Source: Asticcacaulis aquaticus (GTDB lineage: Bacteria; Pseudomonadota; Alphaproteobacteria; Caulobacterales; Caulobacteraceae). From it: a stretch of DNA of 64,000 nucleotides. A program made the position numbers and the translations under genes. Positions 52,138 through 55,047 of this stretch are shown in pieces (position 1 is the stretch's first letter; each line of letters starts with the position of its first letter). Under the pieces are notes generated by a model. That model was given only the letters and a program-made list of their open reading frames with translations. It did not search any database and was not told the DNA's origin. The stretch covers positions 124,001-188,000 of the forward strand of contig NZ_JAQQKX010000002.1 of the NCBI RefSeq assembly GCF_028550415.1, given 5' to 3'.

Positions 52138-52227
52138 CCCCGATACAGGGCGTCTCTCCCGGACGCCCTGACGCACGGCGCTTTGTCCCGAAGCGGGCCG
52201 TCCCCCAAAGCCCCTGAGGTCGTGCGC

Positions 52228-52269
52228 CCAGACCACGCTGCATTTTGAAGGAAATGCAGCGTGGTCTGG
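52228..52269. repeat. Perfect 18-bp inverted repeat
   Basis: Arms of 18 bases (CCAGACCACGCTGCATTT and its exact complement) with a 6-base loop TGAAGG. There is no T run after it. It sits 90 bases after the aldehyde dehydrogenase stop, before the dispersed repeat at 52282 and a true terminator. Confidence 0.75.
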
Positions 52270-52281
52270 AGTCTTTGCGGG

Positions 52282-52330
52282 TCGCATGCTTGAGACGAAA
52301 AACCGGTTTCCACTTTTTCGCAGCATGCTC
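52282..52330. repeat. Dispersed palindromic repeat, copy A (GCATGCT...AGCATGC)
   Basis: About 49 bp bounded by TCGCATGCT and AGCATGCTC with CGAAAAACCGGTTTCCAC inside. Nearly identical to 57305-57353 and related to 61424-61471. Confidence 0.8.
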
Positions 52331-52334
52331 CAAG

Positions 52335-52364
52335 GCCGTCCGCTTAACCGCGGACGGCTTTTTT
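52335..52364 (+). terminator. Strong rho-independent terminator
   Basis: GCCGTCCGC and GCGGACGGC arms followed by TTTTTT. It ends the aldehyde dehydrogenase transcript and insulates the tmRNA gene. Confidence 0.92.
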
Positions 52365-52417
52365 ATGTGCATGAGGCCCCACCCCTCTTTCTTAATGACC
52401 AGAGAGCGCCTATATTC

Positions 52418-52745
52418 AAGGCGTTCCTTCGGGGACTATGGGGATAAACGCCCACGTAATAAGCGGACTGGACCCGGGTGCGATTCCCGGCGGCTCCACC
52501 ATTTCTCCCTTACGGGATATCATGGGGCCGATCAGCATCGACAGACGTGTAAAGGTGTCGCCTTCTCTCAGTGTGAGCCTCTGTGATCGGCTCAAACATA
52601 TAGTTGCGAACGATAACTTCGCTTCGGATGTCGCTCTTGCTGCGTAATGCGGCGGAGTAAATCCACCTAAACTCCTGAAGAATAAGCCCTTCAGGCGGGG
52701 CCCGGCGAGGGCCTGGCAACAGAACCTCGCCACTTCTCACACATT
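52418..52745 (+). ncRNA. ssrA: tmRNA, circularly permuted two-piece form
   Basis: tmRNA frees stalled ribosomes and tags the nascent protein. The order is permuted as in other alphaproteobacteria: the acceptor piece comes first (about 52418-52501, with a T arm CCGGG/CCCGG and the 3' end GGCTCCACCA), then a 22-base spacer, then the coding piece from GGGGCCG at 52524. GGGGCCG pairs with CGGCTCC with a G-U third pair, the alanine identity signal. The tag frame is 52606-52647; with the charged Ala the tag is AANDNFASDVALAA. A GGCGAGG/CCTCGCC hairpin holding GCCTGGCAACAGAA (52704-52730) lies near the coding piece 3' end. Both outer ends are approximate. A TATATT at 52411 may be the -10 box. Confidence 0.92.
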
Positions 52746-52952
52746 TAGTTCAGGCCCTCGCCTCTTTTTTGAGTGTCTTTGGGAGGGCCTGGCAACAGAA
52801 CCTCGCCACTTCTCACACATTTAGTTCAGGCCCTCGCCTCTTTTTTGAGTGTCTTTGGGAGGGCCTGGCAACAGAACCTCGCCACTTCTCACACATCTAG
52901 TTCAGGCCGTCGCCTCTTTTTGAGTGTCTTTGGGGGGCCTGGCAACAGAACC
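52708..52952. repeat. 76-bp tandem repeats of the tmRNA 3' region and terminator
   Basis: Units start at 52708, 52784 and 52860 (76, 76 and 75 bp); a fourth is cut after 18 bases (52935-52952). Units 1 and 2 are identical; unit 3 has two substitutions and one lost T. Each full unit has AGGGCCTGGCAACAGAAC, then AGGCCCTCGCC, then a T run. Unit 1 belongs to tmRNA, so the array is a serial copy of its 3' hairpin plus terminator. Confidence 0.93.
52752..52770 (+). terminator. tmRNA transcript terminator (right arm and T run)
   Basis: AGGCCCTCGCC (52752-52762) is the exact complement of GGCGAGGGCCT at 52704-52714 and is followed by TCTTTTTT. The left arm also forms the short hairpin of mature tmRNA, so the two structures are alternatives. 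Two more copies follow in the array, the last with a mismatch. Confidence 0.7.
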
Positions 52953-52977
52953 CCATCAATTTCCAAAATTCCGGAAT

Positions 52978-54333
52978 TTAAGACGCCTTGCGCAGGGTCT
53001 CGAAGAACCGTTCGACATGGGTCGTCAGTTGCTGCGATTGCGCCGTCAGGGTGCCCGCCGAACCGTCGACATCGCGGGTTGCTGCGCGGGTTTTCTGCAC
53101 CGCCCCGTCAAGCGCGGAAATGTGATCGCTGAGGCGACCTGCCGCATCCGATACGTGCTGAATGCTGCCGGCGATTTCATTAGTAGCCGTCGATTGTTCC
53201 TCCATCGCTGCCGCGACCGAGGTCGTCGCCGCCTCGACGTCATTGACCGCAATGGCGATGTCGCGGATCGAGGCCACCGCGCGACCGGTCGAGGCCTGAA
53301 TGGTCTGGATGTGGTTGCCGATTTCGGTCGTTGCCCGCGCCGTCTGATCGGCCAGCGCCTTGACTTCAGTCGCAACCACGGCAAAGCCCTTGCCCGCATC
53401 TCCGGCGCGGGCCGCTTCGATCGTGGCGTTGAGCGCCAGCAGATTGGTCTGGCTGGCGATACCCTGAATGAGGCCCAGAATTTCACCGATGCGGTTGACG
53501 GCGCCGGACAGTTGCGCCACCTCTTCGGAGGAGGTTTCGGCCATGGTGACGATGCGCCGCACATGTTGCGATGCGCCGGTCACCTGAGACGTGATTTCCT
53601 GAATCGACTTGGTCAGTTCTTCGGACGCCGCCGCCACCGATGACGCGTCCATCTGCGAGCGCGCGGCGACATCGGCCACGGTGCGCGAGGTGTCTTCGGT
53701 GATCCCGACCGTCTGGCCCAGGTCCTGCGACGTACCCTGAAGCTGGGCCGAGCTTTCGGCGAAGATACCGGCGATCTGATCGAAGGCCGTGCGGAAATCC
53801 TCGATGGCCGATTCGGTGGCGCGCGAACGGACACGGATCGCCTCCTCGCTGGCGTGCTGATAGGTCGAGATGGCGATATCGAGGTCGAGGAACACCGCCT
53901 TGATCACCGAGGTGAGCGACGCCCCCATGGCCTGAGTGCGGAAGCGGTTATGAACGGCCAGCACGGCGATGATTTCATCGAGCACGAACTGATAGGCCGC
54001 GACGTACCAGCGCGGCTCCAGACCGATGCGGTGGTGAGTCTGGCCGATGCGATAGGCCTGTTCGAAATAGGCCTCGCTGAACCCCGAGGTGAACAGGTTG
54101 CGCCAGTGGCTGATCTGGGCCCGTTGCAGGCGGTCTTCGTGGTCGCCGATCATGCGCGCCAGCGAGTCTTCGCGCTTCACATGCGCGTAGAAGGCGTTGA
54201 GGATGCGCGGCAGGTGCGGCTCCAGCACCGGCCACACCGTCTTCAAACGCATGATATCGGCCGGCGCGATCCGCGCAAACGCCAGACGGTGGGCATAGTT
54301 GGTGTCGACGACGGAAGCAGCGGAAGTCATCAT
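52978..54333 (-). CDS. Globin-coupled methyl-accepting chemotaxis protein
   Basis: 451 residues, soluble. Residues about 10-165 are a globin-coupled sensor domain: His100 in [20 protein letters not shown] is the expected proximal heme ligand. Residues about 190-445 form the signalling coiled coil, with the hairpin tip near [32 protein letters not shown]. It should sense oxygen or another heme gas and signal to CheA. ATG at 54333 or 54330 is used; the longer frame starts at GTG. No che genes are adjacent. Its 3' end lies 26 bases after the truncated fourth tmRNA repeat. Confidence 0.92.
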
Positions 54334-54552
54334 GGTCGGTGCCTTACGGATCACTAAAACTCAAACGCGAATAATGCCGTTAAGACTCAACCTTTATGAT
54401 TAATAAATCATTGCCGGACCTGCGACAGGTGGTCGCGGCATCCCCATTTTTTTAAGGTTCCATTACCATTTTTTGGTTTCGTTTCACCGGTGCCGTGCTA
54501 AGTCTTCTCATCTCACTCAGCGCATGAACCCTCAGCAGGTACCCAGAGTCAG

Positions 54553-55047
54553 ATGTCAGATACGCCGGCCGTCATCGATCACATGGACTACGCCAACCTG
54601 ACCCAGAACGCCCTGCGCGGCGTCATCCGTCAGGCGCTCCTGCGTGCGGCGCAACCCGGCGGCCTGCCCGGCGATCACCACTTCTATGTGACCTTCCTGA
54701 CGCGCGCCGAGGGCGTCTCGATCCCCGACGACCTGCTGCAGCGCTATCCCAACGACATTACCATCGTCCTCCAGCATCAGTTCCGCGACCTCAAGGTCGA
54801 ACAGGATCGCGTCAGCGTCACCCTGAGCTTCGGCGGCATGCCCAAGGTCTTGCGTTTCCCCTATGCGGCGATCACGCGTTTCTATGACCCCAGTGTGCAG
54901 TTCATCCTCGAATTCGAGGTCGAGGAGGCCGAAGAGGCCAATGACGACCTGATCACCGAGGCCGAAGACACGCCTGTCGAGCCGGTGAAAACCGACAGCG
55001 ATGACGCCCCCAAGGTCGTCTCGCTCGATCAGTTCCGCAAGAAATAA
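54553..55047 (+). CDS. sspB: SspB, ClpXP adaptor (alphaproteobacterial type)
   Basis: 164 residues. The folded domain (1-125: MDYANLTQNALRGVIRQALLRAA...GDHHFYVTFLTRAEGVSIPDDLLQRYPNDITIVLQHQF) is typical SspB-alpha. A flexible acidic linker follows, and the tail KVVSLDQFRKK is the ClpX-docking motif. SspB delivers ssrA-tagged proteins to ClpXP. The tmRNA gene that makes those tags is about 2 kb upstream, with the chemoreceptor between. The 219-base upstream gap contains an ATGATT/AATCAT palindrome at 54396-54411 and T-rich stretches. Confidence 0.93.
   Translation: MSDTPAVIDHMDYANLTQNALRGVIRQALLRAAQPGGLPGDHHFYVTFLTRAEGVSIPDDLLQRYPNDITIVLQHQFRDLKVEQDRVSVTLSFGGMPKVLRFPYAAITRFYDPSVQFILEFEVEEAEEANDDLITEAEDTPVEPVKTDSDDAPKVVSLDQFRKK

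What the first reader, a model, noticed from the sequence alone, without database searches (positions are those of the whole stretch)
52708..52952. Tandem array copying the tmRNA 3' hairpin and terminator
Three 76-bp units plus a partial fourth lie in tandem immediately after ssrA. Unit 1 includes the end of the coding piece (GCCTGGCAACAGAA loop) and the terminator; units 1 and 2 are identical, so the expansion is recent or kept by gene conversion. Possible effects: stacked terminators, read-through RNAs with extra tmRNA-like pseudoknots acting as decoys for RNase or SmpB, or simple slippage. I know of no report of tmRNA-tail tandem repeats.
Basis: partly seen in the sequence, partly recalled or inferred. 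Interest (0 to 1): 0.78.

Follow-up and report, generated by a model that had tools for sequence, protein, structure and literature searches.

The report
Stacked old ends of tmRNA gene
Behind the gene for the ribosome-rescue RNA (tmRNA) of this bacterium lie three extra copies of the gene's own last hairpin, and comparison with relatives suggests that such copies are former gene ends pushed downstream when a new end took over, a turnover seen in many alphaproteobacteria without a visible mobile-element gene.

Summary
The array is real. Window 52704-52957 holds four copies of the 3'-terminal hairpin of a permuted alpha-tmRNA gene; the Rfam match 52384-52734 ends in the first. Loop spacing is 76, 76, 74; units 1 and 2 are identical. 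The first three units also carry a third arm complementary to the hairpin's 5' arm, followed by a T-run: a terminator-like alternative fold. It is not an oddity of one genome: 15 of 25 congeneric loci, 36 of 76 deliberately enriched other family loci and 3 of 68 loci elsewhere in the class have extra hairpins, some in single-contig genomes. Downstream hairpins often have a different stem, in 9 of 14 cases the working stem of another congener; they keep the inner four pairs and lose the outer three. Three close pairs differ by 41-, 45- or 75-bp unit indels at the base of the first hairpin. Best reading: stacked, displaced former tmRNA 3' ends, made by recombination or template switching at a hairpin hot spot, then expanded locally. 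No tyrosine integrase lies within 100 kb of ssrA in 8 genomes tested. The decoy idea has no support; serial termination is plausible, unproven. Direction (gain or loss) and agent are not settled.

The parts
52384..52734 (+). ssrA, permuted two-piece tmRNA gene
   Evidence: RF01849 240.8 bits, model 1-355 complete
52606..52647 (+). tag reading frame ANDNFASDVALAA and stop
   Evidence: translation
52704..52731 (+). hairpin 1, the working tmRNA 3' end: left arm L1 52704-52710, loop 52711-52724, right arm R1 52725-52731 (7 pairs)
52753..52762 (+). third arm T1, complementary to L1 plus start of loop (12 bp when extended), followed by TCTTTTTT
   Evidence: inverted repeat I3
52783..52807 (+). hairpin 2, in a unit identical to unit 1; left arm reduced to the inner GAGG
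52829..52838 (+). third arm T2 followed by TCTTTTTT
52859..52883 (+). hairpin 3 (unit slightly diverged)
52905..52914 (+). third arm T3 with one change, followed by TCTTTTT
52933..52957 (+). hairpin 4: inner GGGG, loop 52937-52950, right arm CCCCATC; this right arm equals that of the single working hairpin of the sister genome G012 (L020)
52978..54354 (-). protoglobin + MCP signalling-domain gene (globin-coupled sensor), convergent; its stop lies 20 bp behind hairpin 4
   Evidence: ORF; Pfam PF11563 and PF00015
54553..55047 (+). sspB (adaptor for ssrA-tagged proteins), in most sampled relatives the gene next behind ssrA
   Evidence: Pfam PF04386; synteny

Best explanation
The array is a stack of former 3' ends of the tmRNA gene. 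The gene's last hairpin (7-bp stem, loop GCCTGGCAACAGAA) is replaced from time to time by a new unit (hairpin plus a tail; in the long form with a third arm that can pair with the left arm) that enters at or just inside the 5' base of the old hairpin, directly behind the conserved ...GGCGGGGCCCG. The new hairpin becomes the working tmRNA end; the old one is pushed downstream, keeps the inner 4 bases of its left arm, its loop and right arm, and decays. Units with the same stem then multiply by local duplication, as units 1-3 here. Shown: copies, anatomy, stem statistics, unit-sized indels at the base of hairpin 1, near confinement to the ssrA locus. Inferred: the direction (gain rather than loss) and the mechanism, most likely recombination or replication template switching in which polymerase stalls a few bases inside the hairpin and copies from another ssrA end (sister or incoming DNA). 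In this genome each long unit also carries an intrinsic-terminator-like stem and T-run, so the array may act as serial terminators, I think as a side effect more than as a selected device.
For: Working versus displaced stems, 67 distinct arrays (26 duplicates of 93 removed): 66 first hairpins pair at the seven positions from the loop outward at .98 1 1 .98 .98 .95 .79; 98 displaced ones at .96 .88 .94 .86, then .60 .52 .18 (right arms shuffled among units.44 .82 .78 .74 .47 .54 .30). 36 displaced right arms differ from the first one at two or more of seven positions; 25 of these 36 still have all four inner pairs with their own left arm, 12 of 36 if the first right arm is put in. In the genus 9 of 14 displaced right arms unlike their own first one equal the working right arm of another of the 25 loci; letter-shuffled arms give mean 0.21, maximum 3 in 2000. 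L007/L011 differ by a 41-bp unit, L004/L012 by 45 bp, L024/L025 by 75 bp, each placed right behind GGCGGGGCCCG, with the other stem next in line; their tmRNA bodies differ at 5, 2 and 2 of about 308 positions. Hairpin 4 of the window has the right arm of the single hairpin of its sister L020. Loop changes per hairpin by rank: 0.09, 0.28, 0.29, 0.33 (n 66, 67, 24, 6; one of rank 5 has 0; the finder admits one mismatch, so this is capped). The exact loop motif is nearly confined to ssrA: 3 stray hits in 25 genomes, by eye without a stem.
Against: Direction is not proved: on the tmRNA-body tree L024/L025 can be read as loss of a unit in L024, and L002 and L012 both have three hairpins, so L004 may also have lost one; 7 of 25 inner branches are open. 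L006 against L007 shows an extra stretch with two hairpins that is not at the first position. 59 of 98 displaced right arms equal the first one, so plain tandem duplication suffices for those. 5 of 14 displaced right arms in the genus match no other congener. Nothing identifies an enzyme or a donor, and import of units was not shown: unit identity between L001 and the other clade (0.79-0.82) is not above body identity (0.85-0.86).
Confidence: 0.55

Rival explanations
1. Ordinary tandem repeat: slippage or unequal crossing-over at a hairpin-prone terminator makes 1-5 copies that drift; stem differences between units are mutations.
For: Units 1 and 2 identical; 59 of 98 displaced right arms equal the first; copy number varies 1-5 among relatives; the left-flank identity of same-stem copies peaks at 4 bases, a plausible slippage end point.
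Against: 36 of 98 displaced units differ from R1 at two or more of seven positions, 25 of them with all four inner pairs to their own left arm, and 9 of 14 in the genus equal the working stem of another genome. The last hairpin of the window has a different tail, which an in-place duplication would not give.
Confidence: 0.25
2. The units are footprints or minimal cassettes of integrative elements that use the 3' end of ssrA as attachment site, as genomic islands do at other tmRNA genes; the island bodies are gone, or the ~75-bp unit itself is the mobile cassette moved in trans.
For: Same logic as ssrA islands: target 3' end restored, old fragment displaced in the same orientation, stacked series (PMC3146451, PMC2764846, PMC4383910, passages only).
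Against: No tyrosine integrase match (PF00589) within 100 kb of ssrA in 8 of 8 genomes, none on the window's 337-kb contig. sspB is found behind the last hairpin on the same strand in 35 of 51 family arrays, 30 of them within 263 bp. Viral contigs showed single-hairpin tmRNAs and no half site. No plasmid or phage record matches the window stretch. Serine recombinases were not searched.
Confidence: 0.12
3. The array is a selected RNA device: hairpin 1 (L:R) and a terminator (L:T) exclude each other, and the next left arm can take T back, so the array tunes 3'-end formation of tmRNA and read-through into sspB.
For: T matches L at 9-10 of 10 bases in 34 of 51 family arrays, 3 of 50 family singles and 0 of 65 class singles; controls: L of another locus 0.1-0.2%, letter-shuffled L 0.7-2.8%. 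Over 42 distinct arrays with a T arm, predicted pairing is L:R in 42 before T, L:T in 40 once T is made, and with hairpin 2 present T:L2 in 22, L1:R1 in 20, L1:T in 5.
Against: The T-run behind T is often weak (0-2 T in 8 bases in 11 of 42); units without T exist (17 of 51 family arrays have no match of 9 or 10); in the window sspB is separated by a convergent MCP gene, and none of the 3 class arrays outside the family shows sspB behind it in the held stretch. T and L may stay matched by copying, not selection. The pairing rests on prediction only.
Confidence: 0.15
4. Assembly artefact.
For: The window's assembly is in 38 contigs, and identical 76-bp units can be miscounted by short reads.
Against: Extra hairpins occur in single-contig genomes (G017, G020) and in a contig whose title names the assembler Canu (Phenylobacterium sp. 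J367, L119 = L034); unit 3 and hairpin 4 differ from units 1-2. Only the exact copy number here is uncertain.
Confidence: 0.03

Closest known systems
Genomic islands integrated at ssrA with displaced 3' fragments (tDNA islands; Dehalococcoides ssrA islands)
   Same: A new 3' end takes over the gene and the old end lies downstream in the same orientation; islands can stack, and for one Dehalococcoides pair the authors infer that the one further downstream came earlier (passages of PMC3146451, PMC2764846, PMC4383910).
   Different: 76 of 78 spacings here are 35-104 bp, the units hold no gene, no tyrosine integrase lies near in 8 genomes, and the site is the non-tRNA-like hairpin of a permuted gene. 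From memory only: Williams 2003 reports an island at the permuted 3' end in cyanobacteria; that paper is not held.
Rfam RF01849 alpha_tmRNA 3' hairpin
   Same: Unit 1 is the last part of this model; the loop CCUGGCAACAGAA is in its consensus.
   Different: The model has one such hairpin. In the tmRNA database paper PMC11915505 (passages and one section read) the words 'tandem' and 'duplicat' do not occur in the main text.
Intrinsic terminators
   Same: L:T stem of 10-12 bp followed by TCTTTTTT in the window.
   Different: The 5' arm is shared with the mature RNA hairpin, the loop is 35 nt in the window, and the T-run is not conserved in relatives. The consensus scan reports none in the array; it admits loops of 3-8 only.
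Tandem pseudoknots of cyanobacterial tmRNA (recalled, not looked up)
   Same: A tmRNA structural element in tandem.
   Different: Those lie inside the mature RNA; here the copies lie behind the modelled 3' end.

Membership tests
Permuted alpha-tmRNA gene (RF01849) | Full covariance-model match with intact tag frame | tested here: met
   240.8 bits, positions 1-355; ANDNFASDVALAA*
Genomic island at a tmRNA gene | Restored target gene end plus displaced fragment of it downstream, same orientation | tested here: met
Genomic island at a tmRNA gene | Integrase gene in or next to the element | tested here: not met
   no PF00589 match within 100 kb of ssrA in 8 of 8 genomes; serine recombinases not searched
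Genomic island at a tmRNA gene | Cargo DNA between target and fragment | tested here: not met
   76 of 78 spacings are 35-104 bp, the others under 190; no room for a usual gene
Intrinsic terminator | G+C-rich stem directly followed by a T-run | tested here: met
   in the window: 12-bp stem and TCTTTTTT, unit 1, with a 35-nt loop that the consensus scan does not admit; in 42 distinct arrays with a T arm the T-run is often weak
Intrinsic terminator | RNA 3' ends at the T-run | not testable with these tools
   needs Term-seq or northern blot
Simple tandem repeat | Units are copies of one another | tested here: inconclusive
   true for units 1-3 of the window and 59 of 98 displaced right arms; not for hairpin 4 and 36 of 98
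Dispersed palindromic repeat / mobile element | Copies elsewhere in the genome | tested here: not met
   exact pattern hits outside ssrA: 3 in 25 genomes, by eye without a stem at the loop

The most novel reading that the evidence does not exclude
A previously undescribed, gene-less kind of cassette turnover: 'tail cassettes' of about 40-95 bp, each a complete replacement for the tmRNA 3' hairpin, are inserted at one fixed point of the permuted ssrA gene, newest first, so that the locus keeps a readable record of former ends and the stem of a conserved RNA can jump between unrelated sequences in one step.
Probability: 0.3. Interest if true: 0.82.

Novelty: new variant of a known kind. Interest (0 to 1): 0.6.

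Why it matters
tmRNA is among the most conserved bacterial RNAs, and its gene is a favourite landing site of mobile DNA. Here the very end of the gene seems to turn over by whole hairpins, without a visible mobile element, and to leave old ends behind. That would give a natural record of how compensatory change in an RNA stem can happen in one step, a marker locus that varies between close relatives, and a caution for annotating tmRNA ends and the terminators behind ssrA. If the T arm works as predicted, it would be a terminator that borrows an arm of the mature RNA.

Tried and rejected
Dispersed element: the exact loop pattern occurs outside ssrA 3 times in 25 genomes (reversed pattern: once), by eye without a stem at the loop. 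Phage attachment half sites: 156 stretches of viral contigs with three loop variants; 88 pass a loose test of at least 4 adjacent pairs, none of the stretches listed twice. I scanned 12 of these with Rfam; 10 hold a permuted tmRNA over the cut-off, L260 and L322 do not; no array or half site seen. Plasmid and phage records: no match to window 52690-52960. Resident islands: no tyrosine integrase within 100 kb of ssrA in 8 genomes. Decoy RNAs: no evidence found. Import of the window's unit from the neighbouring clade: unit identity not above body identity, left open. 'The T arm is the normal ssrA terminator of the class': rejected, 0 of 65 class singles have a match of 9 or 10. Two exact loop hits 2.3 kb apart in G504 were not followed up.

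Rows dropped or weak: the family loci outside the genus were chosen to be rich in multi-hit genomes. 80 of the 274 sampled genomes outside the genus were searched with RF01849, 75 matched; 78 loci were held, including two contig-edge loci without a model match (L094, L095), and two were dropped (L088 loop not recognised, L104 contig edge), leaving 76, of which 36 are arrays in 35 genomes (G258 has two). So 36 of 76 is no prevalence; 35 of 274 is a lower bound. Class sample: 70 genomes searched, 69 matched, L220 dropped (loop not recognised), 68 used; L210 ends at a contig edge just behind the loop and counts as single. Of the 40 named stretches L135 was not recovered by my script. L002's third hairpin, with a shortened loop, is not counted. 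One first hairpin (L118) has a doubled loop start and scores no pairs. My first removal of duplicates missed three, so the pooled numbers here are those (genus only) is not affected. Eight identities between unnamed and named loci were checked over 600 bp.

Literature: the listings (several cut to 15 or 20 rows of up to 92) show no title or abstract opening on tandem tmRNA 3' hairpins; the library holds open-licence PMC papers only. Williams 2003 is not held and Mao 2009 was not looked up, so an earlier mention there cannot be excluded.

Full report
What is there. Window 52384-52734 is a complete permuted alpha-tmRNA gene (RF01849, 240.8 bits) with an intact tag frame. Its last element is a hairpin: left arm GGCGAGG (52704-52710), loop GCCTGGCAACAGAA (52711-52724), right arm CCTCGCC (52725-52731). 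Behind it follow three more copies of the loop at 52787, 52863 and 52937. Units 1 and 2 are identical over 76 bp; unit 3 is slightly changed; hairpin 4 has another right arm, CCCCATC. Units 1-3 each contain a third arm T (GGCCCTCGCC, once GGCCGTCGCC) that is complementary to the full left arm of hairpin 1 plus the start of the loop and is followed by TCTTTTTT or TCTTTTT.

Not unique. Each of the 25 genomes of the genus has one RF01849 match over the cut-off. Two of them carry the same sequence as MAGs named Asticcacaulis (L011 = L113, L006 = L117). 15 of the 25 loci have two or more hairpins. From a family sample of 299 genomes I examined 76 further loci, chosen to be rich in multiple hits; 36 have arrays, and family arrays hold 2-5 hairpins. 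Elsewhere in the class 3 of 68 loci have a second hairpin. An exact two-loop pattern found 40 stretches in the collection of 84,980 genomes, 39 of them recovered as arrays by my script; record titles include Caulobacter radicis, C. hibisci, C. endophyticus, a strain filed as C. vibrioides T5M6, Phenylobacterium kunshanense, Brevundimonas aveniformis, and outside the family Rhodobacter sp. KR11, Tabrizicola oligotrophica and a Beijerinckiaceae MAG. Of 78 spacings in the family and class loci 51 are 70-79 and 12 are 40-49.

Anatomy across species. The first hairpin is nearly always a good stem (six or more contiguous pairs in 63 of 66), and its sequence differs between species. Downstream hairpins keep the inner four pairs and lose the outer three. 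In the genus 9 of 14 displaced right arms unlike the local first one are the working right arm of another genome. Three close pairs differ by a unit-sized indel placed right behind GGCGGGGCCCG, with the other stem next in line. I read this as displacement of old ends by new ones. Loss with repair of the outer left arm would also give such pairs; by my reading of the arms it needs two matched base changes in each of the three, so I think it less likely, but the tree does not decide. L006 against L007 shows that units are also gained or lost further down.

The third arm. T matches L at 9 or 10 of 10 bases in 34 of 51 family arrays and 30 of 39 named arrays (many of them the same loci), against 3 of 50 family singles and 0 of 65 class singles; with the L of another locus (three or more differences) the rate is 0.1-0.5%, with letter-shuffled L 0.7-2.8%. 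Over the 42 distinct arrays with such a T arm, predicted folding goes from L:R (42) to L:T once T is made (40), and with hairpin 2 present T:L2 exceeds one half in 22 and L1:R1 in 20. In the window this is a fair intrinsic-terminator candidate, though the consensus scan, which admits short loops only, lists none there; the T-run is not general. T is therefore part of the long unit rather than of the ordinary gene, and short units lack it.

Surroundings. ssrA is mostly followed by sspB, the adaptor gene for tagged proteins: same strand, in 51 of 65 class singles and 73 of 101 family loci, as far as the held stretches reach, and in 0 of 3 class arrays. In the window a protoglobin-MCP gene on the other strand (52978-54354) lies between the array and sspB (54553-55047). 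No tyrosine integrase match lies within 100 kb of ssrA in eight genomes of the genus. Viral stretches showed single hairpins; plasmid and phage records gave no match.

Known relatives. The closest known situation is the island at ssrA: new end restored, old fragment displaced, islands stacked (passages of PMC3146451, PMC2764846, PMC4383910). The present arrays share the outcome and lack the element. The main text of the tmRNA database paper PMC11915505 does not hold the words tandem, terminator or duplicat (passages and section 7 read). The listings show no description of tandem tmRNA 3' hairpins.

Verdict. Observation confirmed; interpretation partly supported. A recurrent, structured turnover of the tmRNA 3' end, most likely by recombination or template switching at the hairpin; function, if any, probably serial termination; agent and direction unproven.

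Noticed in passing
window 52198-52340: A perfect 18-bp inverted repeat (52228-52245/52252-52269) and, on the minus strand, a sub-threshold match to the Brucella sRNA BASRCI27 (46.4 bits, cut-off 59.8) lie between an aldehyde dehydrogenase gene and ssrA; by eye, sequence like part of it separates the two hairpins in L114 and L152.
   Followed up: no
window 52978-54354: A globin-coupled MCP gene interrupts the usual ssrA-sspB neighbourhood here; other congeners (L002-L005, L012) show similar minus-strand sequence behind ssrA (by eye).
   Followed up: partly
window 52384-52734: ARAGORN reports no tmRNA in the window although RF01849 matches at 240.8 bits.
   Followed up: no
L251, L262, L292, L301, L307, L340, L344, L359, L382, L403: Viral contigs carry their own permuted tmRNA with the same terminal loop and one hairpin; 10 of 12 scanned stretches pass an Rfam cut-off.
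   Followed up: partly
L027 1825-2110: In one distant family member (G039) two extra hairpins are spread over about 250 bp with other sequence between them.
   Followed up: no
L074 and L102 (G258): One family genome has two RF01849 genes on different contigs, both with a second hairpin but with different stems.
   Followed up: no
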